From: Phaeacidiphilus oryzae TH49
GTDB lineage: Bacteria; Actinomycetota; Actinomycetes; Streptomycetales; Streptomycetaceae
DNA length: 64,000 nt
Assembly: GCF_000744815.1 (NCBI RefSeq)
Contig: NZ_JQMQ01000005.1
Coordinates: 6,405,801 to 6,469,800, forward strand
Direction of reading: 5' to 3'
Shown here: positions 2,592 to 40,555 of the stretch, one piece after another
How positions within the stretch are numbered: position 1 is the first letter of the stretch
Layout of the letters: the number at the start of each line of letters is the position of its first letter
The notes under the pieces: generated by a model
What the model saw: only the letters and a program-made list of their open reading frames with translations
What the model was told of the DNA's origin: nothing
The model's database searches: none
Position numbers and translations under genes: made by a program

Positions 2592-3296
2592 CTAGGCCGG
2601 CACCCGGGCCGCCGCCTGCTTCCGCCAGAGCTTGACGACCGCCGCGCCATGACGGTCCATCAGCTCGCCGAAGCGGGCGGCGGCGGCCTCGCCGTCGCGC
2701 TCGCGCAGCGCGCGGGCGATGTCGGCGAGCGCCTTCTTCTGGGCCGTGCGGCTGCCGGCGACCTCGGCGAAGAAGTTGCCGGGGACGAGGTTCCCGAGCT
2801 GGCGGGAGACGGCCTTGAGGCGGGTGGAGTCGGCCAGGTTGAACATCTGGCGCAGGAACAGGTCGTTGCGCCGGTAGAACTCGTCCACGTCCCGGGCCGC
2901 CGCGGCCTGCCGCTGGAGCTCCGCCAGGCGGTCCAGGCCGTCCGCGTCCGCGCGCTCGGCCGCCCGCCGGGCCACCAGCCCGTAGAGGGTGCCGATCAGC
3001 GCGTAGTGGTCGACGATGGTGCGTTCGTCGAGGCCCTGGACGAAGGCCCCGCGGTGCGGCTCGATGGAGATCCAGCCCTCCGCCTCCAGCGCGATCAGCG
3101 CCTCCCGCACGGGGATCCGGCTCACCCCGAGCTCCGCCGCGATCTCGTCCTGCCGGACGTGGTCGCCCTGCTGGAGGCGGCCCTGGAAGATCAGGCCGCG
3201 CAGGTGCTCGGCGACCTGATCGCCGTTGCTCGGGCGCTGGAGGCGGGCGCCCGGGTAGCCGTCGTCGCCCATGGGGCGGCGGGTGCGGTGTGCCAT
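2592..3296 (-). CDS. GntR-family (FCD subfamily) transcriptional regulator
   Basis: 234 residues. The N-terminal winged helix-turn-helix (about residues 25-90) contains the GntR signature QDEIAAELGVSRIPVREAL and the wing EGWISIEPHRGAFV. The C-terminal all-helical FCD domain (about 95-225) contains the spaced His/Asn residues (RRNDLFLRQMFNLA and DRHGAAV) that usually bind a metal and a carboxylate effector. It lies 58 bases downstream of, and in the same direction as, the coupled acyl-CoA operon 8303-3355, so it is the likely local repressor of that operon. Its own promoter would lie in 3297-3354, where an ACTATACAAAG sequence is present. Confidence 0.9.
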   Translation of the reverse strand: MAHRTRRPMGDDGYPGARLQRPSNGDQVAEHLRGLIFQGRLQQGDHVRQDEIAAELGVSRIPVREALIALEAEGWISIEPHRGAFVQGLDERTIVDHYALIGTLYGLVARRAAERADADGLDRLAELQRQAAAARDVDEFYRRNDLFLRQMFNLADSTRLKAVSRQLGNLVPGNFFAEVAGSRTAQKKALADIARALRERDGEAAAARFGELMDRHGAAVVKLWRKQAAARVPA

Positions 3297-3354: not shown

Positions 3355-4209
3355 TCACACCCCGCGGAAGCGCGGCGGCCGGCGTTCGACGAAGGACCGG
3401 ACGCCCTCCTGGCTGTCCCAGGTGCGGGAGAGGGCGTCCACCGCCCAGGCCTCCTCCTGCGCCAGCACCTCGCGGCCGACGTCGAGGGAGTGGTTGAGCA
3501 TCCACTTGTTGACGGCGTGGGCGCGGGTCGGCCCGTCCGCCAGCCGGCGGGCCAACGCCTCGGTGGCGGCGGCGAGTTCGCCGCCCGGGACGACCCGGTT
3601 GACCAGGCCGGCCCGGAGGGCCTCGGCCGCCGGGAGGTCCTCCGCGAGCAGCACCAGTTCCTTCGCCCGCCGCAGTCCGACCAGCCGCGGCAGCAGCCAG
3701 GCGCCCAGCCCGTCGGCCGCGAGCCCCCGGCGGGCGAAGACCTCGATGAACCTGGCCTCCTCGGCCGCCACCACCAGGTCGCAGGCCAGGGCGAGATGCG
3801 CGCCGATCCCGGCGGCGGTGCCCTGGACGGCGGCCACCACCGGGCGGTCGCAGTCCAGCACGGCGCTGATCAGGCGGATGGCGCCGCCGAGCAGCATCCG
3901 CCGCACCTCGCCGACCGGCCTCTCCTGCCGGGCGGGCGGGGCCGCGTCCCCGGCGCCTGACCTCGGCCCGCGCAGGTCGGCCCCGGTGCAGAAGAACCGG
4001 CCCTCGGCCCCGAGGACCACGCAGCGGGTCGACGGGTCCTCGCTCGCCCGCTCCAGGGCGCCGATGATCCGCTCGCGCGCGGCGGCGTCGATGGTGTTGG
4101 CGGCCTCCGGGCGGGCGAGGGTGATCCAGGAGACGCCGTCCTCGACGCGCACCCGGACGCCGTCCTCGGCCGGCTTCCCCCCGTCGATCGCCGCAGCGGT
4201 GTCGCTCAC
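3355..4209 (-). CDS. Enoyl-CoA hydratase/isomerase family protein
   Basis: 284 residues with a crotonase fold. The CoA-binding/oxyanion motif is FFCTGADLRG and the second oxyanion region is VQGTAAGIGAHLALACD. The usual first catalytic Glu of hydratases (GGGxEL) is replaced by His here and the second is not obvious, so isomerase or another crotonase chemistry is as likely as classical hydration. The GTG start at 4209 overlaps the stop of the preceding CoA-transferase in a GTGA arrangement, which indicates translational coupling. It is the last enzyme of the leftward acyl-CoA operon. Residues 1-15 are likely disordered. Confidence 0.9.
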   Translation of the reverse strand: MSDTAAAIDGGKPAEDGVRVRVEDGVSWITLARPEAANTIDAAARERIIGALERASEDPSTRCVVLGAEGRFFCTGADLRGPRSGAGDAAPPARQERPVGEVRRMLLGGAIRLISAVLDCDRPVVAAVQGTAAGIGAHLALACDLVVAAEEARFIEVFARRGLAADGLGAWLLPRLVGLRRAKELVLLAEDLPAAEALRAGLVNRVVPGGELAAATEALARRLADGPTRAHAVNKWMLNHSLDVGREVLAQEEAWAVDALSRTWDSQEGVRSFVERRPPRFRGV

Positions 4210-5495
4210 TTCGCCCTCTCCCTCTCCTCGGCCGGTGCGGGGCCCGAGGCGCCGAGCGCTCCCGCCGACCGCAGCTCCGCCAGGCGCGCGTCGTCGTAGC
4301 CGAGGAGTTCGCGCAGCACCGCCTCGGTGTGCTGGCCCACCTCGGGGGCGCGGGCCGGATGCGGCAGCTCCTCGCCGACGAACCGCAGGGGGGTGGGCAG
4401 TTGGTCGGCGCCCAGCTCCTCCTTGGGCAGCAGCGGCATCCTGGCCTTCAGCTGCGGGTCGTCGAGCAGCGTCCGCGGGGTGTTGACCGGGGCGATCGGG
4501 ACGTTCTCCCGCTCCCCGAAGTCGATCCACTCGGCGCTGGTGCGCCCGGCGAAGATGTCCCGCAGCTCCTCGCGCAGCTCGGTGTTGCCGCGGGCGTGGT
4601 CGCCGTACTGCGAGCCGGGCCAGCGCTCGAAGAAGTCCGGGCGGCCGACCGCCGTGCAGAAGTTCCGCCAGAGCGAGCGCTCGGAGGCCATGAAGAGGAC
4701 GAAACCGTCCTTGGTCCGGTAGATCTGGTACCGGACGCCCTCCTTCATCCCGGCGATGCCGGGCGCCCGCCGCTGGTAGCCGTCCGCCGCGTTGCCGGTG
4801 ACCTCGGACTCCGGCCGCTCGTACGCCTTGTAGGTCTCCGAGCGCAGCCAGTCGACGGCGGCGGCGGAGTCCGACTGGGCGATGTCGATCTCCGCCCCGA
4901 CCCCTGTCTCCCGGGCCCGCAGCAGCGCGGCCAGGATGCCCAGCGCCCCGTACAGCGGGCCGGCGTTGATGCCGATCGAGGTGTGCTCGGAGATGTAGGT
5001 GTGGCCGTCCTCGGTGACCCCGGGGGTGACGATCCCGGCCCAGGTGTCGTACGCGATGCCGTGGCTGGGCAGGTCGCGGTACGGGCCGGTGGCGCCGTAG
5101 CCGGAGATGGTGCAGAACACCAGCCGCGGGTTGACCTCGAGGAGTCGCCGGTAGCCGACGCCCCGGCGCTCCAGGCCGCCCGGGCGCATCGCCTCGACGA
5201 CCACGTCCGCGCCGGCGACCAGCTCCTTGAAGACCGCGATCCCCTCCGGGGTGCGGAGGTCGAGGACGACCGACCGCTTGCCGCGGTTGACATGGAGATG
5301 GAGGAGGGAGGTGCCCTCGACGATCGGCCAGGTCATCCGGCGGCCGTAGTCGCCCTGCGGGGGCTCGACCTTGACCACCTCGGCGCCCAGGTCGACCAGC
5401 GCCGAGGTGACCGCGGCCGGGCCGAGCATGGAGCACTCGATGATCCGCACCCCGGCCAGCGGAGGGGCCGGGGCCTGCTGGGGGTGCGCCGTCAT
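4206..5495 (-). CDS. Class III (CaiB/BaiF) CoA-transferase
   Basis: 429 residues, the standard length for family III CoA-transferases. The N-terminal Rossmann-like half begins GVRIIECSMLGPAAV and carries the conserved VDLGAEVVKVEPPQGD. The region GYGATGPYRDLPSHGIAYDTWAG followed by YISEHTSIGINAG is where the catalytic Asp normally lies (GDxxTG/A); here the segment is divergent, so the catalytic Asp position is uncertain. The family transfers CoA between carboxylic acids, often activating a substrate at the start of a degradation route. ATGA overlaps with both neighbours tie it to the thiolase upstream and the enoyl-CoA hydratase downstream, so it probably activates the acid degraded by this operon. 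Confidence 0.92.
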   Translation of the reverse strand: MTAHPQQAPAPPLAGVRIIECSMLGPAAVTSALVDLGAEVVKVEPPQGDYGRRMTWPIVEGTSLLHLHVNRGKRSVVLDLRTPEGIAVFKELVAGADVVVEAMRPGGLERRGVGYRRLLEVNPRLVFCTISGYGATGPYRDLPSHGIAYDTWAGIVTPGVTEDGHTYISEHTSIGINAGPLYGALGILAALLRARETGVGAEIDIAQSDSAAAVDWLRSETYKAYERPESEVTGNAADGYQRRAPGIAGMKEGVRYQIYRTKDGFVLFMASERSLWRNFCTAVGRPDFFERWPGSQYGDHARGNTELREELRDIFAGRTSAEWIDFGERENVPIAPVNTPRTLLDDPQLKARMPLLPKEELGADQLPTPLRFVGEELPHPARAPEVGQHTEAVLRELLGYDDARLAELRSAGALGASGPAPAEERERAK

Positions 5496-6691
5496 GCCGA
5501 ATCCCTTTCGGTGCCGAGGATGGAGACGAAGGAGACCATGTCGCCGGGGTAGCCGCCGAGGTTGTGGGTGAGGGCGAGCCGCCGGCCGGTGTCCGGGATC
5601 CGCCGCTCCTCCGGCGCCTCGCCGCGGAGTTGCAGCCAGGCCTCGAACATCATCCGCAGGCCGGAGGCGCCCACCGGGTGGCCGAAGCTCTTCAGCCCGC
5701 CGTCCGGGTTGACCGGCAGCCGGCCGTCCAGGTCGAAGGCGCCGGCCAGGACGTCCTTCCAGGCGGTGCCGCGCTCGGCGAAGCCCAGGTCCTCCATCAG
5801 CACCAGTTCGGTGGGGGTGAAGCAGTCGTGGACCTCGGCCATCGCCAACTCGGCCGCCGGGTCGGTGATCCCGGCCTGGCGGTAGGCGTCCCGGGCGGTG
5901 GCGGCGATCTCCGGGAAGTGGGTGTAGTCGTAGTCGGGGTCGATCACCCCGGAGCCGTTGCCGGCGATCAGCGACAACGCCTTGATGTAGAGCGGCCTGT
6001 CGGTGTAGCGGTGGGCGTCCTCGGCGCGGACCACGACCGCGGCGGCGGCCCCGTCGGCGACCCCGGCGCAGTCGAAGACCGTCAACTCCCCGGCCACCCG
6101 CGGCATCGCGGAGATCTTCTCGGGGGCGATCTCCCGGCGGAACTGGGCGCGCGGATTGCGGGCGCCGTTGCGGTGGTTCTTGGCGGCGATCCGGGAGAGC
6201 ACCTCGCGCATCTGATCCGTCGTCAGGCCGTAGCGCCGCGCGTACGCGGGGACCACCAGCGCGAACATGGCGGCGGCGGTGAGGGTGCGCTGGGTGCCGT
6301 CGCCGGGGATGTGGACCGGGCTCAGGCCCTGGTAGCCGCTGTCCTTGACCTTCTCCACGCCGACCGCGAGCGCCGTGTCGTACGCTCCCGAGGCGACCGC
6401 GTAGGCCGCCTGGCGCAGGGCCTCCGAGCCGGTGGCGCACATGTTCTCGACCCGGGTGACCGGGCGGTCGCGGAGCTGGAGCGGCCGGGCCAGGGTGCCG
6501 CCGGACAGGCCGGAGCCGACCGTGCCCAGCCAGTAGGCGTCGATCTCCTGCTTGTCCAGTCCGGCGCCGGCCAGCGCCTGGCCGGTGGCGTCCAGCAGCA
6601 GGTCGTCGGTGCCCTGCTGCCAGTGCTCGGCGAAGCGGGTGCAGCCCATGCCGACGATGGCCACCCGGTCGCGGATTCCGTGCGAGCCCAT
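5492..6691 (-). CDS. Thiolase-like acetyl-CoA acetyltransferase (SCP2-type lipid-transfer subfamily)
   Basis: 399 residues with a thiolase fold. The nucleophilic Cys is in RVENMCATGSEAL (C85), the catalytic HDCFTPTEL motif is present and the C-terminal His lies in GLKSFGHPVGASG. The last motif, NLGGYPGD, lacks the second Cys of classical biosynthetic thiolases, as is typical of SCP2-type thiolases and of Ltp2-like aldolases that work with a DUF35 partner. The upstream neighbour, ending 1 base before this start, contributes exactly such a DUF35/OB-fold domain, so the two proteins probably form a complex. Thiolytic or retro-aldol cleavage of a branched acyl-CoA is the likely role; the choice cannot be made from sequence. 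Confidence 0.92.
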   Translation of the reverse strand: MGSHGIRDRVAIVGMGCTRFAEHWQQGTDDLLLDATGQALAGAGLDKQEIDAYWLGTVGSGLSGGTLARPLQLRDRPVTRVENMCATGSEALRQAAYAVASGAYDTALAVGVEKVKDSGYQGLSPVHIPGDGTQRTLTAAAMFALVVPAYARRYGLTTDQMREVLSRIAAKNHRNGARNPRAQFRREIAPEKISAMPRVAGELTVFDCAGVADGAAAAVVVRAEDAHRYTDRPLYIKALSLIAGNGSGVIDPDYDYTHFPEIAATARDAYRQAGITDPAAELAMAEVHDCFTPTELVLMEDLGFAERGTAWKDVLAGAFDLDGRLPVNPDGGLKSFGHPVGASGLRMMFEAWLQLRGEAPEERRIPDTGRRLALTHNLGGYPGDMVSFVSILGTERDSA

Positions 6692-6692
6692 C

Positions 6693-8303
6693 TCAGTCCT
6701 CCGCCGGAGTCTCGGCCGCGCGTATCGGGCGGGCCTTCCAGAAGTAGTTGACGATCCCGTCGGCGCTGCCCAGGCGGCGGAAGGCGGGCTCGACCCGGTC
6801 GCCGATGGCGACCTGCCCGGCGTCCACGTCGGTGAGCTCGACCGGCAGCCGGCCGCCCCCGTCGAAGTCCACCACCGCCAGCACCACGGGCGGGCTGGGC
6901 GACCAGGCCATGCGGTCCACGGTGAAGGTGCGGACGGTGCCGGCGGCCTCGGCCATCGGGGCCGGGTCCATCTCGTCCTGGGCGTCGCCGCGCATCGAGA
7001 CCCGCTGCGGCGGGAGGTGGACGGCGCCGGAGGAACGGTCCCGGGAGCCGGTGAAGCCGTACTTCCACTCGACGGACCGGGCGGCCGCGGAGGAGGAGGT
7101 GCGGGCCGGCTCGGGGCGGCGCGGGGGCTCCGGGCGGAGCTCGCCGCGCCAGGCGAGGAAGCGGCCGTAGGGGATGGCACCGCCCGTGGCGATCTGCGCG
7201 TCCACGCTGCGGGCCGGCCGGTGGGCGGCGAGCGCCGGGGTGGTGCGGAAGAGGAGGACGTCGGCGCCGTCGGCGAGGAGGACGAGGGCGAGGACCCGGT
7301 CGGCGGGGGCGGCACCGGAGCCCGCCGGGCCGGCGCCGGAGCCCGCCGGGCCGGCGCCGGAGCCCGCCGGGCCGGCGCCGGAGCCCGCCGGGCCGGAACC
7401 CGCGGGGCCTGAACCGGCCGGGCCGGAGCCCGCCGGGCCGGCCGCGAACCGCTCCAGCTCGCGGGCCAGCAGGAGGCCCGGATGGGCGGCGCCGGTGACC
7501 CCGGTCAGGGCCTCCAGGCCGTCGGCGAGGGCGCCGTCCGGCACGCCGAGGCTCCGGCGCAGGCCCGCCACCGCCCGGGCGTGGAGGCCGGTGACGAGGA
7601 CGCGGTCGACCTGATCCGCCGTCAGGCCGGTGGCCTTGAGGGCGTCCTGCCAGGCGCGGCGGCCGGCGGCGAGGTAGCGCTGCTCGCCGAAGCGCTCCTC
7701 CCACAGGGAGGAGTGCCGCTCGCCGGGGGCCCGCCAGCGGTCGGTGAACTCGGCGGTGACGGTGGCCCCGCCGAGGTACGCGGCCAGCAGCGGCCCGTCC
7801 GCCTCACCGCCGATCAGCAGCGCCGATCCGCCGTCGCCCCCCGCGGACTCGTCCGGACCGCCGGGCCGGCCGGTGCGGATGTCTCCCGCGGCCACCAGCG
7901 TGCAGCCGGGGGCGGCGCCGGCCGCCGGCCCGCTCTCCAGAGCCAGCCGCAGCAGCCCGGTCGCCGCCCGTACCGAGCCGGCCGCGTCCATCGCGGGCGC
8001 CGCCGCGTCCAGGCCGAGGACGGCGTGGACGGCGGTGGCGTTGGTGCGGTCCGCGTAGGCGGGGGAGGAGGTGGCGAAGAGGAGCCGGCCGACCGCCGGG
8101 CCGGGCGCCGCGCGCAGCGCCAGCCGGGCCGCCTCGGCCGCCATGGTGGTGCTGTCCTCGTCGTAGGAGGCCACCGAGCGCTGCCCGCGCCCGCCGCCGC
8201 CACCCGCCACGGCGGCGATCGCCGAGCGCTCCAGCCGGCGGTACGGGACGTACCCGGCGAAGCCCAGCAACCCTCGTACAGAGGTCTCCTGACGTTTCGT
8301 CAT
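6693..8303 (-). CDS. HMG-CoA-synthase-like ketosynthase fused to a C-terminal OB-fold (DUF35) domain
   Basis: 536 residues in three parts. Residues about 8-285 resemble the HMG-CoA synthase/KAS III fold (GLLGFAGYVPYRRLERSAI at the start; LLFATSSPAYADRTNATAV). Residues 288-332 are a (GPAGSG/GAGPAGS)n linker. After a further 335-400 segment that returns to ketosynthase-like sequence, residues about 410-527 form the DUF35 OB-fold (VEWKYGFTGSRD, TFTVDRMAWSPSPPVV, GDRVEPAFRRL). At the position of the catalytic Cys (ACxAG in active enzymes) the sequence is AAGSVRAAT, with Ser110. It heads the leftward operon; in archaea separate thiolase, HMGCS and DUF35 proteins form one channelled complex, and this operon encodes the same three folds in two adjacent genes. 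Confidence 0.85.
   Translation of the reverse strand: MTKRQETSVRGLLGFAGYVPYRRLERSAIAAVAGGGGGRGQRSVASYDEDSTTMAAEAARLALRAAPGPAVGRLLFATSSPAYADRTNATAVHAVLGLDAAAPAMDAAGSVRAATGLLRLALESGPAAGAAPGCTLVAAGDIRTGRPGGPDESAGGDGGSALLIGGEADGPLLAAYLGGATVTAEFTDRWRAPGERHSSLWEERFGEQRYLAAGRRAWQDALKATGLTADQVDRVLVTGLHARAVAGLRRSLGVPDGALADGLEALTGVTGAAHPGLLLARELERFAAGPAGSGPAGSGPAGSGPAGSGAGPAGSGAGPAGSGAGPAGSGAAPADRVLALVLLADGADVLLFRTTPALAAHRPARSVDAQIATGGAIPYGRFLAWRGELRPEPPRRPEPARTSSSAAARSVEWKYGFTGSRDRSSGAVHLPPQRVSMRGDAQDEMDPAPMAEAAGTVRTFTVDRMAWSPSPPVVLAVVDFDGGGRLPVELTDVDAGQVAIGDRVEPAFRRLGSADGIVNYFWKARPIRAAETPAED
7313..7441 (-). repeat. In-frame GC-rich minisatellite encoding a Gly-Pro-Ala-Ser linker
   Basis: Tandem copies of a unit encoding GAGPAGS (21 bp, three copies) merge into shorter units encoding GPAGS (15 bp, about four copies). 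All lie inside the HMGCS-like/DUF35 fusion gene and stay in frame. Unit lengths are multiples of three, so copy-number change would alter linker length without breaking the protein. Confidence 0.85.
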
Positions 8304-8329: not shown

Positions 8330-8358
8330 CCGACTTAGGTCGGATAATGTATATACAT
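8330..8358. promoter_or_regulatory. Two adjacent palindromes in the divergent acyl-CoA promoter region
   Basis: The first is a 5-4-5 inverted repeat, CCGAC-TTAG-GTCGG (8330-8343). It is followed at once by the perfect 12-bp palindrome ATGTATATACAT (8347-8358). They sit in the 104-bp gap between the leftward HMGCS/DUF35 operon (start 8303) and the rightward enoyl-CoA hydratase (start 8408). The A/T-rich palindrome fits a GntR-FCD type operator (TGTATACA-like core), which suits the GntR encoded at 2592-3296; this is inferred. Confidence 0.6.
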
Positions 8359-8407: not shown

Positions 8408-9244
8408 GTGACCAACGACTACAAGACCATCCGCTACGAGGAGCGCGACCGGGTCGCCTGGGTGACCCTGGACCGCCCCGAGGTGCACAACGCCTTCAAC
8501 ATGGAGATGCTCCGGGAGATCCGGCACTGCTGGCGCTCTCTCCGGGACAACGACGACATCGGGGCCGTCGTGGTCACCGGGGCGGGCGACAAGGCCTTCT
8601 GCGCCGGCCTGGACCGCGCGGACATCGCGGACCCGGACGGCGTCCGGGACATCCCGGAGCGCACCGAGATCCGGGTGCACGGCCACACCCCGCTGCACTT
8701 CGACGACCCCAGCGACTGGATCTCCCCCAAGACCGGCGCCGACCTCTGGAAGCCGATGATCGCCGCGGTCAACGGCATGGCCTGCGCCGGCGCCTTCTAC
8801 CTCCTCGGCCAGGTGGAGTTCATCATCGCCTCGGACGACGCCACCTTCTTCGACCCGCACACCGCCTACGGCATGCCCGCCGTCTACGAGCCGATGTCCA
8901 TGCTCCAGCGGATGCCGATCGGCGAGGTGATGCGGATGACCCTGATGGGCGACCGCGAGCGGCTCTCCGCGGCCCGCGCCCACCAGATCGGCCTGGTGCA
9001 GGAGGTGGTGCCGAGGGAGCGGCTGCACGAGGCGGCCCACCGGGCCGCGGCGATCATCGCCGACCAGCCGGACCTCGCCGTGCAGACCACCGTCCGGGCC
9101 GTCTGGTACGCCCAGGAGATGGGCTACCGCCAGGCCCTGGACGTGGCCCGCACCCTCGTCCAGCTCGGCACCGGCGACGAGGCCCTGGCGGAGGGCCAGC
9201 GCCGGTTCGGCAGCGGCCGGCGCCCGCCCTGGACACTGCGCTGA
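8408..9244 (+). CDS. Enoyl-CoA hydratase/isomerase family protein
   Basis: 278 residues, crotonase superfamily. The CoA/oxyanion motif AFCAGLDRADI is near residue 60, and the second oxyanion loop reads VNGMACAGAFYLLG. The usual paired Glu residues are not clearly conserved, so the exact reaction is open. The GTG start follows an AGGGAGG tract with no spacer, so ordinary Shine-Dalgarno initiation is unlikely at this codon; with the -10 box at 8388-8393 the mRNA may have an extremely short leader. It is transcribed away from the leftward acyl-CoA operon and toward a second class III CoA-transferase 197 bp downstream, with which it probably forms a unit. Confidence 0.9.
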   Translation: MTNDYKTIRYEERDRVAWVTLDRPEVHNAFNMEMLREIRHCWRSLRDNDDIGAVVVTGAGDKAFCAGLDRADIADPDGVRDIPERTEIRVHGHTPLHFDDPSDWISPKTGADLWKPMIAAVNGMACAGAFYLLGQVEFIIASDDATFFDPHTAYGMPAVYEPMSMLQRMPIGEVMRMTLMGDRERLSAARAHQIGLVQEVVPRERLHEAAHRAAAIIADQPDLAVQTTVRAVWYAQEMGYRQALDVARTLVQLGTGDEALAEGQRRFGSGRRPPWTLR

Positions 9245-9288: not shown

Positions 9289-9420
9289 CGACCGCAGTCC
9301 GACCCGCAGTCCGACCCGCAGTCCGACCCGCAGACCGACCCGCAGTCCGAGCCGCGGACCGGACCGCAGACCGACCCGCAGTCCGAGCCGCGGACCGGAC
9401 CGCGGACCGACCCGCAGACC
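9289..9420. repeat. 12-bp tandem repeat array (11 units), intergenic
   Basis: Eleven consecutive 12-bp units related to GACCCGCAGTCC fill most of the gap between the enoyl-CoA hydratase and the CoA-transferase. The three units at 9337-9372 and those at 9373-9408 form a 36-bp higher-order repeat differing at one base. The array lies between the stop at 9244 and the ATG at 9442. It is open in the downstream reading frame (DPQS-type tetrapeptides), but the AAAGG ribosome-binding site at 9427-9431 and the conserved family start favour an untranslated spacer. Confidence 0.9.
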
Positions 9421-9441
9421 GATCCGAAAGGCGACCACCGC

Positions 9442-10764
9442 ATGCGCATCGGAGAGACCGCCAACGACCGGGCCGCCGCCTGGGGCAAGCCCCTGGACGG
9501 GGTGCGGGTCCTCGCCCTGGAGCAGATGCAGGCCCTCCCGTACGCCACCCAGCTGCTGGCCCGGCTGGGCGCGGACGTGGTGAAGGTCGAGCCGCCGCGG
9601 ACCGGCGAGTCCGGGCGCGGCTCGCTGCCCGCGATGCTGGACCCGGAGGGCCGGAAGGTCGGGATCACCTTCACCCGCAACAACTTCGGCAAGCGCAGCA
9701 TCGGCGTCGACCTCAAGCGGCCCGAGGGGCGGGACCTCGTCCTGCGCCTGGCCCCCCGCTTCGACGTGGTCGCCGAGAACTTCAAGCCCGGCACCGCCGA
9801 CCGCCTCGGGCTCGGCTACGCCGACATCGCGGCGGTCCACCCCCGTGGGGTCTACCTCTCCGTCTCCGGCTTCGGCAACGGCGACTCCCCGTACCGGGGC
9901 TGGCCGGCCTACGCGCCGATCGCCGAGGCGATGGCCGGGCTCTACGACTTCAAACGGGACCCGGAGACCCCGCCGGTGGTCTCCCCGCTCGGCGCCCTCG
10001 GCGACACCGGTGCCGCGCTCTTCGCGGTGATCGGCGTCCTGGCGGCGCTGCGCCACCGGGAGCGGACGGGGGAGGGGCAGCACGTCGACATAGCGATGTA
10101 CGACGCCATGGTCGCCTTCGGCGACGCCGGGCTGAACTACTGGTCGATGGGTCTGGAGCGGCCGGGGAACGCCCCCGGAATCAACCACTCCTTCCGCTGC
10201 GCGGACGGCTTCTTCATCCTCCAGTGCGGACGGCCGCACATGTTCGAGCGGCTGGCCCGGACGGTCGGCCGGCCGGACTGGACGGCGGATCCGCGGCTGG
10301 CCGGACCGCAGGACTGGTTCGACCGGCTGGAGGAGCTGATCCGGCCTGGGATCGAGGAGTGGGCAAGGGAGTTGACGGGACGTCAGGCCACTGCGGCGCT
10401 GGCCGCGGCGGGCGTGGCCGCTGGACCCGTGCAGTCCCCGGCGGCGGTCGCCGCCGACGAGCATGTGCGCCGGCGCGCCATGCTGGTCGAGTACGACCGC
10501 CCGGACGGGGTGGACCGCCCGATCCTCTCCCCGGGCAATCCGGTCAAGCTCTCCAGGATGACCGAGGGCCCGCTGCGCCGGATGCCCTGGCTCGGCGAGC
10601 ACACCGCGACCGTGCTGCGCGAGGAACTCGACCTGGACGAGGCGGAGTTGCACCGGCTGGCCGAGTCCCTCACGATCGGCGGCCCGGGCGTGGCCGCCGA
10701 CCGCCCCGGCGTGGCCGATGACCGCCCCGGCATACCCGACGGTCCCGGATCGCGCCTCAGTTGA
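9442..10764 (+). CDS. Class III (CaiB/BaiF) CoA-transferase
   Basis: 440 residues. The N-terminal half includes [36 protein letters not shown] and the NNFGKRSIGVDLKRPEG block conserved in this family. The catalytic Asp lies in LGALGDTGAALFA. The dimer-swapped second domain includes EGQHVDIAMYDAMVAF. Residues about 415-440 form a poorly conserved tail with repeated RPGVADD-like units. The ATG at 9442 follows an AAAGG site at a suitable distance. It overlaps the convergent CPBP gene by 8 bp. The enzyme probably transfers CoA onto, or between, substrates of the adjacent hydratase; the acid is unknown. Confidence 0.92.
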   Translation: MRIGETANDRAAAWGKPLDGVRVLALEQMQALPYATQLLARLGADVVKVEPPRTGESGRGSLPAMLDPEGRKVGITFTRNNFGKRSIGVDLKRPEGRDLVLRLAPRFDVVAENFKPGTADRLGLGYADIAAVHPRGVYLSVSGFGNGDSPYRGWPAYAPIAEAMAGLYDFKRDPETPPVVSPLGALGDTGAALFAVIGVLAALRHRERTGEGQHVDIAMYDAMVAFGDAGLNYWSMGLERPGNAPGINHSFRCADGFFILQCGRPHMFERLARTVGRPDWTADPRLAGPQDWFDRLEELIRPGIEEWARELTGRQATAALAAAGVAAGPVQSPAAVAADEHVRRRAMLVEYDRPDGVDRPILSPGNPVKLSRMTEGPLRRMPWLGEHTATVLREELDLDEAELHRLAESLTIGGPGVAADRPGVADDRPGIPDGPGSRLS

Positions 10765-11667: not shown

Positions 11668-13986
11668 TCAACCGCGCGGAAGCCCCAGGACGCGCTCGGC
11701 TATCACATTGAGTTGGATCTCCATGGTCCCGCCGCCGATCAGCCGGCTGGGAAGGAGCAGCTCGACACCGGCCGCGTCCACCGGCCCGCCGCCGCCCTCG
11801 AAGCCGCCGTCGCGGCCGTCGCGGCCGTCGCCGGGGCCGCCGTCGCCGGGGCCGCTGTCGCCGGGGCCGCCGCCGTAGCCCGCCGGCCGTACGGCCGCCT
11901 CGGGGCCGGCCAGCGCGAGGGCCGCCTCCGCGGCCTCGCGGTCGAGTTCGGCCGCCGCCACCTTGCTGAGGCTGGCCCCGGCACCGGGCTGCTGCCCGTC
12001 CAGGCGGCGCAGCGTCTCCCGCAGGTTGAGCGCGGCCAGCGCGCCCGCCCTGGCCTCGATCCGGCCGAGGGCGCGCAGTCCGGCCTCGCGGGCCGGGCCC
12101 CCGGCGTCGGCGACCAGCCGGCGGATCGGCTCGGTCAGTCCGCTGCTCATCGAGGAGCTGATGGTCAGCCGCTCGTTCCCGAGGGTGGTGAGGGAGGCCC
12201 GCCACCCGGCGCCCGGCTCGCCGACCAGGCAGTCGTCCGGTACGAACACGCCGTCCAGGAAGACCTCGTTGAAGCCGGACTCCCCGGTGGCCTGCCGCAG
12301 CGGGCGGACCTCGACCCCGGGGGCGGACATGTCCACCAGGAAGCAGCTCAGCCCGCGATGCCTGGGCGCGTCGGGGTCGGTCCTGGCCAGGCAGAAGCCC
12401 CAGTCGGCGGCGTGCGCCCCGGAGGTCCACACCTTCTGCCCGTTCAGCAGCCAGCCGCCGTGGGTCCGCTCCGCCCGGGTGGCGAGTCCCGCCAGGTCGG
12501 AGCCGGCCCCGGGCTCGCTGAAGAGCTGGCACCACCGCACCCCGGCCCGCAGGGTGCCCGGGACGAACCGCTCGATCTGCTCCGGACTGCCGTGCGCCAG
12601 CAGGGTCGGCAGCACCCAGGCGCCGATGGCGAGCGAGGGCGCGGCAAGCCCCCGGCGCTCCAACTCCTCGGCCACCACCAGCTGCTGGACCGGGGTGGCG
12701 GCCAGCCCCCAGGGCTTTGGGTAGTGCGGGGCGACCAGGCCCGCCGCGGCCAGCCGGTCGCGTCGCGGGCCGAAGTCGGCGCCGAGGTGGCCTGGGGAGT
12801 CCGGGGGGAGCTCGCGGACCTCGTCGAGGACCTCGGCGACCCGGGCGCGGAACGGGGCGGTCCGCCGCTCCTCGTCCTCGTCCAGCGCGATGCGGTGCCG
12901 CCTGCGCTCCGTCAGGGCGGCCTCGCCGAGCCGCCGCTGCCAGATCTCCGGGGCACCGGCCAGCGCGGCCAGACTGATCGCCCGGCGCCAGTAGAGATGG
13001 GCGTCGTGCTCCCAGGTGAAGCCGATGCCGCCGAGGGCCAGGATGGTGTCCAGCAGCGCCCCGGCCGCTCGGCCCTGGGCGGCCAGGGCGGCGCCGGCCA
13101 CCGCGATCCGCCGCTGCCCCGCAGGTTCGCCGAGGGCCTGGACGGCGTCCCAGGCCGAGGCGGCGGCCAGTTCCGCGCCCACCCGCAGCCTGGCCAGCCG
13201 GTGCTTGACCGCCTGGAAGGAGCCGATCGGGCGGCCGAACTGCTCGCGCACCCTGGCGTGTTCGACGGCGGTCTCCACGCCCCAGCGCATCACCCCGGCC
13301 GCCTCGCAGGCGGCCAGCGCGACCGCGGCGGAGGCGGCGAAGTCGGCGTACTGCGGCGGGAGTTCGCCGAGGTCGGCGGCGGTGGCGGGGACGCCAGCGG
13401 CGGGCAGCCGCAACCGCCCGATGTCCCGGGTGAGGTCGACGCCGGTCTCGGGAACCCGCCGGAGCCCGAGGGGGCCCGCCGCCTCCGGGTCGACGCGCAG
13501 CCACCGGATGCGCCCGGTGGCGCCGTCCGCGACCCCGACGATCAGCAGCTCGGCGGAGAGGAGGCCGAGCACCGGTGGGCCGTCGGCGTCCTCGGCGCCG
13601 TCCCCGCCCGCCGGCGGCACCAGCGCCGCCGTCGCGCCTCCGGCCAGCTCCTTCAGCAGTTCCGAGCGGGCCTCGCCGGCCGGCAGCCGTACCGCGAGGG
13701 CGCCGGCGACTGCCGTCGGCAGCAGCGGTCCCGGCAGCAGCCCATGGGCGGACTGCTCCAGGACGACGGCCAGATCGGCGAGGGTGCCGCCCTGGCCGCC
13801 GACCTCCTCGGGGAGGTGGACGGCGTGCAGCCCCTGCCGCAGCAGTGCGTCCCAGTGCGCGGGCCGCCCGCCGCGGGCCAGCCGGTCGAACGCCGAGCGG
13901 GTGTCGGCGAGGGCGGCGTGCCGCCCGACGAAACCGCGTACCGCGTCGGCGAGTTCCCGCTCCGTGCCGCTGAGGGCGATCCCCAT
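11668..13986 (-). CDS. Double-domain (fused) acyl-CoA dehydrogenase, FadE34-like
   Basis: 772 residues, twice the usual length, with two acyl-CoA dehydrogenase units. The N-terminal unit (about 1-380) includes the flavin-proximal FGRPIGSFQAVKHRLA and the ending LGGIGFTWEHDAHLYWRRA. The C-terminal unit (about 385-772) includes WCQLFSEPGAGSDLAGLATR, NGQKVWTSGAHAADWG and the final LIGGGTMEIQLNVIAERVLG, where Gly replaces the YEG Glu. Mycobacterial FadE34/ChsE3 in steroid side-chain oxidation has this fused layout, so a branched or steroid-like acyl-CoA is a reasonable but unproven substrate. A Gly/Asp-rich insertion (about 695-722) is encoded by GGCCCCGGCGAC-type repeats. The TetR gene diverges from it. 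Confidence 0.92.
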   Translation of the reverse strand: MGIALSGTERELADAVRGFVGRHAALADTRSAFDRLARGGRPAHWDALLRQGLHAVHLPEEVGGQGGTLADLAVVLEQSAHGLLPGPLLPTAVAGALAVRLPAGEARSELLKELAGGATAALVPPAGGDGAEDADGPPVLGLLSAELLIVGVADGATGRIRWLRVDPEAAGPLGLRRVPETGVDLTRDIGRLRLPAAGVPATAADLGELPPQYADFAASAAVALAACEAAGVMRWGVETAVEHARVREQFGRPIGSFQAVKHRLARLRVGAELAAASAWDAVQALGEPAGQRRIAVAGAALAAQGRAAGALLDTILALGGIGFTWEHDAHLYWRRAISLAALAGAPEIWQRRLGEAALTERRRHRIALDEDEERRTAPFRARVAEVLDEVRELPPDSPGHLGADFGPRRDRLAAAGLVAPHYPKPWGLAATPVQQLVVAEELERRGLAAPSLAIGAWVLPTLLAHGSPEQIERFVPGTLRAGVRWCQLFSEPGAGSDLAGLATRAERTHGGWLLNGQKVWTSGAHAADWGFCLARTDPDAPRHRGLSCFLVDMSAPGVEVRPLRQATGESGFNEVFLDGVFVPDDCLVGEPGAGWRASLTTLGNERLTISSSMSSGLTEPIRRLVADAGGPAREAGLRALGRIEARAGALAALNLRETLRRLDGQQPGAGASLSKVAAAELDREAAEAALALAGPEAAVRPAGYGGGPGDSGPGDGGPGDGRDGRDGGFEGGGGPVDAAGVELLLPSRLIGGGTMEIQLNVIAERVLGLPRG

Positions 13987-27924: not shown

Positions 27925-28272
27925 GTGGAGGCGGAGATCCGACTCGTTGATGCGGACGGTTCGAGCAGCTTGGTTGATCTTGGCCGATGGCTGAGTGGTC
28001 AGCGCGGTCTAGTTGGCAGGGTTCGACAAGTACGTGGAGCGGTTGGTGAGCAGGAGCTGAGTGGTGGGGCCGTAGAGCTCCTCATGGTGGCTGTGGGGTC
28101 CGGCGGTACAATCTCCGTCCTGTCCAACGCGTTGAGCGCCTGGCTGGGAAGCCGGAACGAGACCATTCGCATCGCGAACGGAGATACGACGGCGGAATTT
28201 CCCGCAGGCACCGATCCGCAGACGTTGGAGAAATACCTCAACTTGCTCCGGAGTGACGCAGATGGCGGGTGA
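27925..28272 (+). CDS. EACC1-like effector-associated constant component
   Basis: 115 residues. The pattern MEAEIRLVDADG, then ELLMVAVGSGGTISVLSNALSAW followed by RNETIRIANGDTTAEF matches the small alpha/beta EACC1 proteins (effector-associated constant component 1) described next to caspase-like and other protease genes in actinobacterial conflict systems: a hydrophobic strand, GSGG turn, helix ending W-L, then two strands. GTG 27925 is preceded by a G-rich tract and starts where family similarity begins; ATG 27850 would add 25 unlike residues. It overlaps the caspase gene by 11 bp, implying stoichiometric co-translation. Its role is presumed regulatory: controlling or tethering the protease. 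Confidence 0.8.
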   Translation: MEAEIRLVDADGSSSLVDLGRWLSGQRGLVGRVRQVRGAVGEQELSGGAVELLMVAVGSGGTISVLSNALSAWLGSRNETIRIANGDTTAEFPAGTDPQTLEKYLNLLRSDADGG

Positions 28273-29428
28273 AGTAATCGACTTCGATCGGTCTCGAGCC
28301 ATCCTCATCGGCGTCGCTCACTACGACGATAAGAGATTCCGCGAGATTCCAGCCGCCGAAAATAGCGTTGCTCGCATGCATGCAGTGCTGACTGACCCTT
28401 CCTTGGGTGGCTGGCCGGAGCCGCGAGTTTCGGTCCATGTGGACCCGCGTGCTACTGGCTCCTTCGCGGCAGATCTGGCCGATCTCGCTGTGACCGCTGA
28501 GGAAGCCCTATTTTTCTACTTTGTGGGCCACGGGGCACTTAGTACCATGAACGAGTTATGTTTGGCACTCAGTGACACACGCTGGGATCACGTGGAACCG
28601 ACGGGCTTGCATTACGCCGCAGTAAAGAGAATCCTCAAGCATAGCGCCGCACGCCTTAAGGCCGTGATTCTTGATTGCTGCTACTCCGGCCAGGCAATAG
28701 AGGCGCTTAGTGGAAATGTGATCGATAGCCTTGCGCTATCAGGAAGCACCGTTATCACCGCGGCTGACCAAGCCGCACATGTAGTTCCGCTGGAGCAGCA
28801 GGCCACGGCGTGCACGTCGTTCACTCATCATCTGTTGAGCATCCTCGAAGAGGGGCGCTCGCATGGTCCGGATGTGCTCACGTTGCAGGAGGTCTATCCG
28901 ATCCTGCAGAATCGGCTTCGCGAGCATGATCTGCCAGCCCCGAACCAGCGCACGACTGAGTCCGCTGGACTCTTTCCGCTCGCTCGGAACCGTGCTGTAG
29001 CTATAGCGTCGCTGAGGGTGACTGCAACGGCCGCGCAACTTCCAGTCGGCGAGCGATTTGCCTTGGTTATCTGGCGAACTAGCAGTTCCTATCTAGTCGA
29101 TGCCGACGGCCGACGTTACGACGAAACGGACGACGACGAGGAAGCCCTGCTTGAGGATGACCGCCAGTGGTGGTCCATTGCCCGTTGGCGGACGCCAAAT
29201 CTCAAAGCTTTGGTTGTAGTCACCGACGGCAGGGTCGGACGCATCCGCGAAGTGCAGGGGGTGGACGAGAAAACCACCGCCGCGGGCAGGAATAGCAAAC
29301 TCGTGCTGATGGTGAGTCCGCCGCTGGACTCAGACGGCGTGGTGCGGGCTCTGCCGGGGCTACCCTTCGCGCTCGGCGACGCGTACCCGGCCGTCCAGGG
29401 AAAACTGCGAGAGTACATCACTTTCTGA
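28262..29428 (+). CDS. Caspase-family (C14, metacaspase-like) cysteine protease
   Basis: 388 residues. The caspase fold spans about 10-245: AILIGVAHYDD at the first strand, the catalytic His in FYFVGHGAL (H90) and the catalytic Cys in VILDCCYSGQA (C140). Both are intact. Residues 250-388 form a second, beta-rich domain with an acidic stretch (DETDDDEEALLEDDRQWW) that I do not recognise; it may sense or bind the partner. ATG 28262 has a GGAG site 8 bases upstream; GTG 28253 does not. Codon 99 is TTA (28556-28558), the leucine codon read by bldA tRNA in Streptomyces. GC content is far below that of neighbours. Confidence 0.88.
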   Translation: MAGEVIDFDRSRAILIGVAHYDDKRFREIPAAENSVARMHAVLTDPSLGGWPEPRVSVHVDPRATGSFAADLADLAVTAEEALFFYFVGHGALSTMNELCLALSDTRWDHVEPTGLHYAAVKRILKHSAARLKAVILDCCYSGQAIEALSGNVIDSLALSGSTVITAADQAAHVVPLEQQATACTSFTHHLLSILEEGRSHGPDVLTLQEVYPILQNRLREHDLPAPNQRTTESAGLFPLARNRAVAIASLRVTATAAQLPVGERFALVIWRTSSSYLVDADGRRYDETDDDEEALLEDDRQWWSIARWRTPNLKALVVVTDGRVGRIREVQGVDEKTTAAGRNSKLVLMVSPPLDSDGVVRALPGLPFALGDAYPAVQGKLREYITF

Positions 29429-29492
29429 GGCCGACCGGATGTGGTAAGCATCAGAGGTACGGGAAAAGACCAAGAGGAAATCAGGAGTTGCT

Positions 29493-32400
29493 GTGACCGA
29501 CGCTCTCGACGGGCGCGAGCCAGTGGCCGGCGTGTATGAGCAACTGGTGACCGATGTGCTTGAAGCACAGGTCGGTCCGCTGCGGGAGACCGGCTGGCAG
29601 ATCGTGGAAGGGGCGGTCGGCCAAGAGTCGGTTCCGCATGTATTGGCTCGACATGTCGGACGGCGTACGGCGCGGGCGCTGGGAGCGCTGCCTGCGGAAC
29701 GGCGGGTCGAAGTGGCCAACCGTTTGCTGCGGCTGCTCCAGGAAGCGGCAGAAGATGAGAGAGCTGAGCAGATCGTCGAGGGTCCGCGGCAGTTGCTTGC
29801 TCTTGCTGAGAAGGAAGCGCCTGGTGTTTATGCGATCCGCCCGGCGACGCCGCTTTCTGAATCGGCGCTCCTCACCAACGCCCCGGAGGACCCGAGCCTG
29901 GGGACAGAGTTGCGAGCCGAGCTTGCCACGGCAGACCGGGTTGATCTGATCTGCGCCTTCGTCAAGTGGTACGGCCTGCGCGTGTTGGAGGAGTCTCTGC
30001 GCGCAGTGGCGGCTCGCGGAGTACCCATTCGTGTGGTGACCACCACCTATATGGGTGCCACTGAGCGCCGTGCCCTGGACCGGTTGGTCCGTGAGTTTGG
30101 CGCAGAGGTGAAGATCAACTATGAGCTTCGCTCTACCCGGCTGCACGCCAAGGCTTGGCTCTTTCGCCGCGGCAGCGGTTTTGACACCGCCTACGTTGGC
30201 AGTTCCAACCTATCCCGAGCCGCCCTGCTCGACGGCATGGAGTGGAACGTCCGGCTGTCCTCGGTGAGTACTCCTGACGTCCTCAAGAAATTCGAAGCCA
30301 CCTTTGACTCGTATTGGAGTGAGTCGTCTTTCGAGACCTATCATCCGGATCATGACGCGGAGAGACTGGACGACGCACTAGCGTCCGCGTCGGGGCGAAC
30401 GCAGGCCGGTGCCGAGTCGGGGTCGAGAAGCATCAGTCTCTCGGGTCTGGAAGTGCGTCCCTACAAGCATCAAGAGGACATGCTCAGCCAATTGGCCGCA
30501 GAGCGGGACATCCACTCGCGGCACCGAAATCTGCTGGTCGCGGCGACCGGCACGGGCAAAACGGTGATGGCAGCACTCGACTACCGTGGGCTGCTCCGCA
30601 AGCTCGGCCGAAGGCCGGATCAGCTCTCGCTGCTCTTTGTGGCACACCGTCAGGAAATTCTGCGGCAGTCACTGCGTACCTACCAGGACGTGCTAATCGA
30701 CGCCAACTTCGGTGAGCTGCTGGTGGATGGTGAGGAACCGAGCAATTGGCGGCACGTCTTCGCCAGTACGAGGTCGCTCAATCCTGCCCGGCTGGAGGCC
30801 CTCGCCTCTGACCACTTCGACGTCATCGTCATTGATGAGTTCCATCACAGCGTTGCTCCCACCTACCGTCGGATTATCGACCACTTTCAGCCGATGGAGC
30901 TCTTGGGTCTGACTGCGACTCCCGAGCGCGCTGACGGTCGGCACGTTCATCTGGAGTACTTCGACGGCCGAATTGCCGCCGAGATGCGTCTCTGGGAGGC
31001 GTTGGAGAACGACCTGCTTAGCCCCTTCCACTACTTCGGGATCGCAGACAACACCGATCTGTCCGCAGTGGCCTGGCGTCAAGGAGCGTACGATGCTGCC
31101 GATCTCGACCGGCTATTCACCGGGAACGAGGCTCGCGCCAGGCTAATTGTGAAGGCATTGCACGACAAGGTCAGTCAGCCGCAGCAGATGCGCGCCCTGG
31201 GTTTTTGTACCTCGGTCGGCCACGCGCGCTTCATGGCCGCGTACTTTCAGCGAGCGAATATTAACGCGGTCGCATTGGACGGCACCACCCCAAGCAGGGA
31301 ACGGAAGCAGGCTTTGGAGCAGCTACGAAACGGGGCTCTGCAAGTTCTGTTCTCCGTGGATCTATTCAATGAGGGCCTGGATATTCCGGACGTCGATACC
31401 CTGCTGCTGCTCCGGCCCACGCAGAGCGCAACGGTCTTCTTGCAGCAGTTGGGGCGTGGACTTCGTAGGACCGAAAACAAGCCTGTGTTGACCGTCCTTG
31501 ATTTCGTCGGCCATCATAGGGCGGAGTTTCGCATCGAGGAGCAATTTCGGGCGCTGACCAACCTGACGCGACGTCGACTGGAAGAGCACGTTAAGCTGGA
31601 TTTCCCACAGTTGCCTTCGGGCTGCCAGATCATTTTGGATCGGAAGTCGAAGGAAGCAGTTCTCGAGAACATTCAGGCGCAACTGAAACTGGGCATCAAG
31701 GGCTTGACCGCCGAAGTGCGCGAGTATGCACGACCCGAGATGGCCGACTACCTACTCGAAAGCCGTCGGGAGCCGGCCGATCTCTACCGGGGGAGCAGCA
31801 GTTGGACGGTACTGCTGAGGCGGTCAGGGCTACTTGAGGGGCAAGCGCCGGAGGGCGAAGCGGCGCTGCTCAAGCGGATGCCCGCGTTTCTCCATGCTGC
31901 GGACCCTTTGAGGGTCTCGGCCTATACCGAGCTGCTGGAGGACGATGCGCGCCCGTACGGCGAGTTGACGGAGAAAGAGCAGGGATTCGCCCGCATGCTC
32001 TTCTTCACGCTCTGGCCGACCGGAGGTGGCTTCGCCGACTACCAAGCGGGATTCGAAAGTCTCCGCGAGCAGCGGGCCTTCCGTAGCGAAGCACGGCAAC
32101 TGCTGGCGTGGAACCTTGACCATACACGGCGTCCCACTTACCCGCTCCTTGGAGCGCACGCCACGGTCCCACTCGCGGTGCACGCAGACTACTCACGTGA
32201 GGAGATCTTGCCCGCTCTGGGAGCCTCTCAGCTCGGCGGTTTTCTGCCGGGGACCTTTCGGGAGGGGGCGAAGTGGTGCTCGGCCACCGACACCGATGCG
32301 CTACTAGTCACGCTTACCAAGGACGAGAAGGATTTCAGTCCGACCACACGCTACCGCGATTACGCGCTCAGTCCGAAACTGTTCCACTGGGAGTCCCAGA

Positions 32401-32648
32401 ACAGCACATCTCCAAGCTCTGGTGTTGGTTTGCGCTATCAGCACCATAAAGAGCAGGGGACCCATGTCCTGCTCTTTGTGCGGCGGTTCAAGAAAACCGA
32501 CTCCGGCGGTCCCCAGCCTTGGACGCTTCTCGGGCCGGTGGATTACAAGTCACATGAGGGCAGTAAACCGATGGCTATCGTCTGGCAACTGCACCGGGAA
32601 CTACCGCCGGACATCGAGCTCCTCTCGGCGGTTGCGGGGGTCGGTTGA
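29493..32648 (+). CDS. PLD-nuclease/SF2-helicase protein with C-terminal DUF3427
   Basis: 1051 residues. An N-terminal helical region (1-130) is followed by a PLD-type nuclease domain (about 135-280) with TRLHAKAWLF (H218, K220) and VGSSNLS (S237-N239), a single HKD half. The superfamily 2 helicase (about 320-690) has Walker A ATGTGKT (G353-T357), DEFHH as motif II (D448-H451), TATPER (474-479), and motif VI QQLGRGLRRT (651-660). Residues about 745-1045 form DUF3427. This fusion is widespread in bacterial defence islands and is expected to bind and cut or unwind invading DNA. AGGAG precedes GTG 29493. Codon use is low-GC like the two upstream genes; 64 bp separate it from the protease. Confidence 0.92.
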   Translation: MTDALDGREPVAGVYEQLVTDVLEAQVGPLRETGWQIVEGAVGQESVPHVLARHVGRRTARALGALPAERRVEVANRLLRLLQEAAEDERAEQIVEGPRQLLALAEKEAPGVYAIRPATPLSESALLTNAPEDPSLGTELRAELATADRVDLICAFVKWYGLRVLEESLRAVAARGVPIRVVTTTYMGATERRALDRLVREFGAEVKINYELRSTRLHAKAWLFRRGSGFDTAYVGSSNLSRAALLDGMEWNVRLSSVSTPDVLKKFEATFDSYWSESSFETYHPDHDAERLDDALASASGRTQAGAESGSRSISLSGLEVRPYKHQEDMLSQLAAERDIHSRHRNLLVAATGTGKTVMAALDYRGLLRKLGRRPDQLSLLFVAHRQEILRQSLRTYQDVLIDANFGELLVDGEEPSNWRHVFASTRSLNPARLEALASDHFDVIVIDEFHHSVAPTYRRIIDHFQPMELLGLTATPERADGRHVHLEYFDGRIAAEMRLWEALENDLLSPFHYFGIADNTDLSAVAWRQGAYDAADLDRLFTGNEARARLIVKALHDKVSQPQQMRALGFCTSVGHARFMAAYFQRANINAVALDGTTPSRERKQALEQLRNGALQVLFSVDLFNEGLDIPDVDTLLLLRPTQSATVFLQQLGRGLRRTENKPVLTVLDFVGHHRAEFRIEEQFRALTNLTRRRLEEHVKLDFPQLPSGCQIILDRKSKEAVLENIQAQLKLGIKGLTAEVREYARPEMADYLLESRREPADLYRGSSSWTVLLRRSGLLEGQAPEGEAALLKRMPAFLHAADPLRVSAYTELLEDDARPYGELTEKEQGFARMLFFTLWPTGGGFADYQAGFESLREQRAFRSEARQLLAWNLDHTRRPTYPLLGAHATVPLAVHADYSREEILPALGASQLGGFLPGTFREGAKWCSATDTDALLVTLTKDEKDFSPTTRYRDYALSPKLFHWESQNSTSPSSGVGLRYQHHKEQGTHVLLFVRRFKKTDSGGPQPWTLLGPVDYKSHEGSKPMAIVWQLHRELPPDIELLSAVAGVG

Positions 32649-37661: not shown

Positions 37662-37693
37662 CCAGCGCTTCCGGCGCCAGGATTAAGTCTACT

Positions 37694-37731
37694 CCATACG
37701 GTATGCAATCTGCAGGGTGCTGCAGCTGCAG
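37694..37731 (+). promoter_or_regulatory. Oxalate-regulon operator (frc copy) plus CTGCAG repeats
   Basis: CATACGGTATG, an 11-bp perfect palindrome (37695-37705), followed by CAAT gives the copy CATACGGTATGCAAT of the motif seen at five other sites of the locus. It is 43 bases upstream of the frc ATG. Downstream lie three CTGCAG hexamers (37710, 37720, 37726), a further symmetric feature of unknown meaning. Confidence 0.75.
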
Positions 37732-37747
37732 GGCAGAGGGAGAACAC

Positions 37748-40531: not shown

Positions 40532-40555
40532 GGTCCCGCCCGCGGGTCACGGCGG

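What the first reader, a model, noticed from the sequence alone, without database searches (positions are those of the whole stretch)
6693..8303. Ketosynthase-like/OB-fold fusion with Ser in place of the catalytic Cys and a minisatellite linker
The protein joins an HMG-CoA-synthase-like domain to a DUF35 OB-fold, and a repeat (residues 288-332) interrupts the ketosynthase-like domain. The expected active-site Cys position reads AAGSVRAAT. A Ser (S110) would give no Claisen condensation of the known type. Together with the coupled SCP2-type thiolase, this is reminiscent of the archaeal thiolase/HMGCS/DUF35 complex, but possibly acting as a structural or substrate-channelling partner or as an Ltp2-like aldolase unit.
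Basis: partly seen in the sequence, partly recalled or inferred. Interest (0 to 1): 0.6.

Follow-up and report, generated by a model that had tools for sequence, protein, structure and literature searches.

The report
Dead ketosynthase fused to thiolase scaffold
This gene encodes a widespread but uncharacterised actinobacterial protein in which a ketosynthase-like domain that has lost its whole catalytic triad is fused to a thiolase-binding OB-fold domain and is always encoded next to an intact thiolase, so it is most likely a non-catalytic half of a two-protein thiolase complex.

Summary
The ORF, the HMG-CoA-synthase(HMGCS)-like/DUF35 fusion and the in-frame repeat are real. The headline residue is misassigned: S110 aligns with the Ala before the catalytic Cys, and the Cys position is V111. 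That position is A/V/P/T/G/L/I/E and never Cys in 90 relatives, and not Cys in 30 more. The catalytic Glu (S79 here) and His (T238 here) are lost too, and no Ser, Cys, Thr or His is invariant. The domain is therefore a family-wide pseudoenzyme, not a Ser-for-Cys enzyme.

The 46-residue repeat is private to this genome and modelled as disordered. The fusion gene is followed by an SCP2-type thiolase gene in every relative whose contig extends far enough. That thiolase keeps Cys85, HDCF, GHPxG and NLGG, so it is not Ltp2-like (YDHF). The closest structures are subunits of archaeal thiolase/HMGCS/DUF35, PhlABC, CsATase and MucABC; PhlA, also Cys- and Glu-less, is the precedent.

Best reading: a two-polypeptide thiolase complex whose fused pseudo-HMGCS–OB protein is assembly partner and CoA/substrate-pocket wall, within a CoA-transferase/dehydrogenase/hydratase cluster. 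The window's clade has also lost the DUF35 zinc site, in one event. New variant of a known kind; substrate unknown.

The parts
6693..8303 (-). pseudo-HMGCS / DUF35 (OB-fold) fusion protein, 536 aa
7131..8282 (-). HMGCS/KAS III-like domain, residues 8-391 (aligns to 6ESQ HMGCS chain, Z 40.1, 334 residues, rmsd 1.9)
7971..7973 (-). V111, position of the HMGCS catalytic Cys (S110 is codon 7974-7976)
8067..8069 (-). S79, position of the HMGCS catalytic Glu; A/T/S/V in 90 family rows
7590..7592 (-). T238, position of the HMGCS catalytic His; A/T/V/S/C in 90 family rows
7308..7445 (-). in-frame minisatellite insert (3 x GPAGS, 4 x GPAGSGA), residues 287-332, only in this copy, modelled disordered
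6696..7118 (-). DUF35 part (residues 396-536): OB fold; the four zinc-ribbon Cys of 6ESQ_E are D422, S425, S436, G439
5492..6691 (-). partner SCP2-type thiolase, start codon 1 bp after the fusion's stop codon; C85, H288-D-C290-F, H338, N377LGG
4206..5495 (-). CaiB/BaiF (family III) CoA-transferase, overlaps the thiolase stop
3355..4182 (-). enoyl-CoA hydratase/isomerase family protein
2592..3296 (-). GntR/FCD regulator at the end of the same-strand gene run
8347..8358 (.). perfect 12-bp palindrome ATGTATATACAT in the divergent intergenic region; operator-like (inferred)
8408..9244 (+). enoyl-CoA hydratase/isomerase family protein, divergent
9427..10740 (+). second CaiB/BaiF CoA-transferase (CaiB2); its homologue lies within 3.5 kb of the fusion in 21 of 86 loci scanned
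11668..13986 (-). two acyl-CoA dehydrogenases in one polypeptide (pimeloyl-CoA dehydrogenase-like), probable pathway member

Best explanation
The protein is a catalytically dead HMG-CoA-synthase-like domain fused to a DUF35 OB domain. It forms an obligate complex with the thiolase encoded 1 bp downstream. The thiolase carries out the chemistry: acyl transfer on Cys85, with His288/Cys290/His338 as acid-base residues. The OB half clamps onto the thiolase. The pseudo-HMGCS half serves as assembly partner and as a wall of the shared CoA/acyl pocket, as PhlA and PhlB do for PhlC. In this genome the complex most likely performs thiolytic cleavage (or its reverse) of a beta-keto acyl-CoA made by the neighbouring CoA-transferases, acyl-CoA dehydrogenase pair and enoyl-CoA hydratases. 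Shown here: fusion, loss of the triad throughout the family, retained thiolase residues, strict genetic linkage, structural kinship to the three-component complexes. Inferred: complex formation, pocket role, direction and substrate.
For: Triad columns contain no Cys, Glu or His at their respective positions in 90 family rows, nor in 30 phylum-wide relatives. No Ser/Cys/Thr/His is invariant in 49 aligned sequences, while 43 other positions are. The thiolase has invariant C85, HDCF, GHP.G and NLGG and is far more conserved (75% versus 43% mean column identity). Thiolase gene downstream on the same strand in 79 of 80 loci, the exception being cut at the contig end; in an even sample of 198 genomes of the phylum all 26 thiolase copies lie beside a fusion gene and 29 of 30 fusions examined have the thiolase, the other being at a contig end. 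Best structural matches are 6ESQ HMGCS (Z 40.1), CsATase PhlA-type chain (38.4), PhlA (37.1) and MucA (35.1) for the fusion, and 6ESQ thiolase (52.8), BbsB (52.6), SCP2 thiolase (50.1) and PhlC (49.2) for the partner. Precedent: PhlA lacks Cys and Glu, only PhlC residues act in acyl transfer, and a functional enzyme needs co-expression of all three genes (PMC6392133).
Against: No complex could be modelled or measured. The neighbouring genes beyond the thiolase vary between clades, so the substrate and even catabolic direction are weakly supported. Conserved D106, R112, D157 and W201 could belong to an unknown activity. The window's copy has the longest branch in its close clade (0.36) and carries an insert that could impair it.
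Confidence: 0.72

Rival explanations
1. A PhlABC-like C-acyltransferase: the complex moves an acyl group from one carbon or CoA donor to another acceptor through thiolase Cys85 rather than performing thiolysis.
For: The closest three-component complexes with a dead HMGCS-like subunit (PhlABC, CsATase, MucABC) are acyltransferases.
Against: The partner has HDCF, the SCP2-thiolase motif, whereas PhlC is described with Tyr298 lining its site; the partner's best relatives are 6ESQ thiolase and BbsB. Genes around it are CoA-dependent beta-oxidation types.
Confidence: 0.15
2. An Ltp2/Sal-like retro-aldolase complex acting on side chains of a polycyclic substrate.
For: The DUF35 plus SCP2-thiolase-fold arrangement is shared with Ltp2-ChsH2 and Sal-Shy (6OK1 Z 44.1, 9MYR Z 43.7); a TetR regulator with weak KstR similarity lies nearby.
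Against: The partner keeps Cys85 and HDCF in all aligned sequences; Ltp2 uses YDHF and Sal YDCY. No MaoC-type hydratase domain was found in the neighbouring genes scanned.
Confidence: 0.05
3. An active condensing enzyme that uses S110 as nucleophile (DpsC-like), as the finding suggests.
For: Some KAS III homologues use Ser (DpsC; own knowledge); S110 is adjacent to the Cys position.
Against: S110 is one residue off; Ser in 44, Ala in 30, Thr/Gly/Pro in 16 of 90 family rows; Glu and His also absent.
Confidence: 0.02

Closest known systems
[quoted passage not shown]
   Same: All three domains have its chains as top solved relatives; thiolase catalytic set kept
   Different: HMGCS triad lost; HMGCS and DUF35 fused into one chain; zinc ribbon lost in the window's clade; no sign of the mevalonate pathway in the genes examined
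PhlABC / CsATase Friedel-Crafts acyltransferase (PDB 5M3K, 5MG5, 9SKH)
   Same: HMGCS-like subunit without Cys or Glu, DUF35 subunit, catalytic thiolase-like subunit with Cys
   Different: Three separate polypeptides, phenolic substrates, CoA-independent, PhlC Tyr298 versus HDCF here; biosynthetic cluster
MucABC acyltransferase (PDB 9VBO, 9VBT)
   Same: Same three-part architecture; in the printed alignment MucA also has no Cys at the nucleophile position (Glu there)
   Different: Lower similarity (16-22%), acetylates tetramates, separate polypeptides
Benzoylsuccinyl-CoA thiolase BbsAB (PDB 7PXP)
   Same: SCP2-type thiolase plus DUF35 partner; its pathway also uses a CaiB-type CoA-transferase and an acyl-CoA dehydrogenase (own knowledge)
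   Different: No HMGCS-like domain; anaerobic toluene pathway
Ltp2-ChsH2(DUF35) and Sal-Shy(DUF35) aldolases (6OK1, 9MYR)
   Same: Thiolase fold plus DUF35 clamp
   Different: Tyr-based catalytic motif (YDHF/YDCY); hydratase rather than HMGCS-like partner

Membership tests
HMG-CoA synthase | catalytic Cys nucleophile | tested here: not met
   V111 at that column; 0 of 90 family rows have Cys; 0 of 30 further relatives
HMG-CoA synthase | catalytic Glu and His | tested here: not met
   S79 and T238; no Glu or His in the respective column
HMG-CoA synthase | curated family score | tested here: not met
   87.7 bits versus 244; 53.1 versus 353
HMG-CoA synthase | overall fold | tested here: met
   Z 40.1, rmsd 1.9, 334 residues to 6ESQ_J
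DUF35 (PF01796 plus zinc ribbon) | OB-fold domain | tested here: met
   51.1 bits, cut-off 27.1
DUF35 (PF01796 plus zinc ribbon) | four-Cys zinc ribbon | tested here: not met
   D422, S425, S436, G439; kept in 25 of 90 family rows and in the deeper branch, one change on the tree
SCP2-type thiolase (partner 5492-6691) | nucleophilic Cys, HDCF, GHPxG, NLGG | tested here: met
   C85, H288-D-C-F, G337-H-P-x-G341, N377-L-G-G invariant in 42 sequences
Ltp2-type aldolase | YDHF motif and second catalytic Tyr | tested here: not met
   HDCF in all; motif from PMC12329534
PhlABC-type acyltransferase | HMGCS-like subunit lacking Cys and Glu, with DUF35 and thiolase-like partner | tested here: met
PhlABC-type acyltransferase | CoA-independent C-acyl transfer | not testable with these tools
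   needs purified complex
thiolase/HMGCS-like/DUF35 complex | physical three-domain assembly | not testable with these tools
   no multi-chain prediction available; gene adjacency and fold kinship only

The most novel reading that the evidence does not exclude
An ancient, phylum-wide class of thiolase that obligatorily carries a fused pseudo-ketosynthase/OB subunit, in which the dead ketosynthase pocket has become a substrate- or CoA-presenting (possibly regulatory) site for a dedicated, still unknown acyl-CoA pathway, with the zinc clamp dispensed with once in evolution.
Probability: 0.3. Interest if true: 0.6.

Novelty: new variant of a known kind. Interest (0 to 1): 0.4.

Why it matters
It gives a natural, widespread example of a condensing-enzyme domain turned into a permanent non-catalytic partner of a thiolase, on one chain with its clamp. 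That makes the open question of what the HMGCS-like and DUF35 subunits do in such complexes (scaffold, CoA site, channel) testable in a simple two-protein system. It also warns against annotating these genes as HMG-CoA synthase or the pair as an aldolase.

Tried and rejected
Ser-for-Cys reading: rejected by alignment (off by one, not conserved). Ltp2-like aldolase: rejected by the HDCF motif. Mevalonate-type HMG-CoA synthase: rejected by triad loss and family cut-offs. Repeat as functional linker of the family: rejected, present only in this copy. Common pathway from gene neighbourhood: not resolved; CaiB-type transferase linkage holds in 21 of 86 loci scanned, a mycobacterial locus instead has a Rieske oxygenase, three enoyl-CoA hydratases and a second thiolase, one close relative has B12-binding/MutE-like genes nearby and several have unrelated SpoIIE/PfkB genes. 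The archaeal complex paper is not held. My first gene caller missed frames and was replaced. Sigma-70 and terminator scan of the divergent region gave nothing. Literature search found no paper describing this fusion, which covers open-licence papers only.

Full report
Observation. The open frame 8303..6693 on the minus strand is 536 aa long and starts with ATG. Pfam finds the ChsH2-type OB domain at residues 454-509 (E 1.3e-13). NCBIfam finds archaeal-type HMG-CoA synthase similarity at residues 11-285, below the curated cut-offs. The best solved relatives are 6ESQ_I (HMG-CoA synthase) for the front and 6ESQ_E (DUF35) for the back. The stop codon is followed after one base by the start codon of the partner thiolase, and the thiolase stop overlaps the next start, so the fusion, thiolase, CoA-transferase, enoyl-CoA hydratase and GntR genes look like one transcription unit (inference).

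The Ser claim. In ungapped alignment, HMGCS 'DLEFACKAGT' matches 'DAAGSVRAAT': the catalytic Cys faces V111 and S110 faces the preceding Ala. The alignment has an external check: it places Gly and Cys of the CsATase PhlA-type chain on the nucleophile and Glu columns, and the PhlA crystal structure paper states that Gly115 and Cys83 take the places of the Cys and Glu in PhlA (PMC6392133). Over 90 family rows (the window's included) the nucleophile column is A 29, V 25, P 10, T 9, G 9, L 4, I 2, E 2; the Glu column is A, T, S or V; the His column is A, T, V, S, and Cys once. Column 110 is Ser in 44 and Ala in 30. Among 49 aligned sequences no Ser, Thr, Cys or His is invariant, although 43 other positions are. 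Thirty further members from an even sample of the phylum, including a much deeper branch, likewise lack all three residues. The domain is a pseudoenzyme across the family.

The repeat. TRF reports 7306-7442 with periods 21 and 15. In protein it is three GPAGS and four GPAGSGA units, 46 residues where 87 of 90 rows have one residue and two have five or six. The predicted structure (mean pLDDT 87, pTM 0.89) has its centre disordered, in the loop before the last strand pair of the ketosynthase-like domain. It is a recent private expansion and says nothing about the family.

The partner. The thiolase 5492-6691 is above the cut-off of NCBIfam PRK06157 (588 bits, cut-off 403). C85, H288, D289, C290, F291, H338, N377, L378, G379 and G380 are invariant in 42 homologues. 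SCP2 thiolases carry HDCF, Ltp2 YDHF and Sal YDCY (PMC12329534), so this is a competent thiolase by motif and not an Ltp2-type aldolase. Its model (pLDDT 89) is closest to the archaeal complex thiolase (Z 52.8, 375 residues, rmsd 1.9) and to BbsB (Z 52.6, tied), ahead of PhlC (49.2) and Ltp2 (44.1).

Linkage. Among 80 fusion loci of public genomes, 79 have the thiolase downstream on the same strand; the other is cut at the contig end, and in one (L064) the thiolase lies about 1.7 kb further on. In an even sample of 198 genomes of the phylum, 31 have the fusion and 25 have this thiolase at E 1e-120, and each of the 26 thiolase copies lies directly beside a fusion gene. With a looser cut-off 29 of 30 fusion genes examined have the thiolase next to them, the remaining one being at a contig end. 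Such linkage is what an obligate complex predicts.

Structure. At the top of the list the fusion's ketosynthase-like half matches subunits of thiolase/HMGCS/DUF35 assemblies: 6ESQ (Z 40.1), CsATase (38.4), PhlABC (37.1), MucABC (35.1), then stand-alone HMG-CoA synthases (33.9 and below). In PhlABC only PhlC residues act in acyl transfer and a functional enzyme needs expression of the whole operon; PhlB mediates binding of the other two.

Zinc. The four zinc cysteines of the 6ESQ DUF35 chain are D422, S425, S436 and G439 here. They are all present in 25 rows (mycobacteria, Conexibacter, Pseudofrankia and others) and absent in 65, with no intermediate, and the tree needs a single change. Deeper relatives keep the cysteines, so loss is the likely derived state: the triad died first, the zinc site went later.

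Pathway. Next to the pair lie two CaiB-type CoA-transferases, two enoyl-CoA hydratase-family genes, a double acyl-CoA dehydrogenase and GntR and TetR regulators. In close relatives the order is CaiB2, fusion, thiolase on one strand; in several Acidimicrobiia CaiB2 is divergent. A perfect 12-bp palindrome sits in the divergent intergenic region, expected 0.01 times in the window even with two mismatches allowed. These suggest a regulated CoA-dependent catabolic module ending in thiolysis; substrate and direction are inference. A mycobacterial copy sits with a Rieske oxygenase and three hydratases, so the complex probably serves different pathways.

Verdict. The finding's residue claim is wrong by one position and its aldolase option fails, but its structural-partner idea is well supported. 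The system is a fused, pseudoenzyme variant of a known complex type; I found no description of it in the open literature searched.

Noticed in passing
window 8347-8358: Perfect palindrome ATGTATATACAT between the divergent fusion and hydratase genes, the only such site in 64 kb; candidate operator for the GntR/FCD regulator at 2592-3296.
   Followed up: partly
window 28001-32648: GC dips to 0.61 against about 0.74 around it; it holds a 1051-aa ResIII/helicase protein with PLD-like and DUF3427 domains (29493-32648), possibly an acquired defence-type gene.
   Followed up: partly
window 9290-9426: Another tandem repeat (36/12 bp units) just before the CaiB2 gene; with 7306-7442 it is a second minisatellite in the same cluster.
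   Followed up: no
window 11668-13986: Two acyl-CoA dehydrogenases fused in one 772-aa polypeptide (resembling PimD-like and PimC-like halves), with a Gly/Asp-rich low-complexity stretch near the end.
   Followed up: no
window 36288-52607: MoeA, a third CaiB-type CoA-transferase (37703-38986) and a molybdopterin oxidoreductase with NADH-dehydrogenase-type iron-sulfur domains (48657-52607), perhaps an oxalate/formate module.
   Followed up: no
L101 12220-14476: A B12-binding protein and a MutE-type glutamate mutase subunit lie beside the CaiB2-fusion-thiolase operon in one close relative.
   Followed up: no
L108 and L109: One relative (G017) carries two more copies of the fusion (46-49% identical) in other acyl-CoA clusters.
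   Followed up: partly
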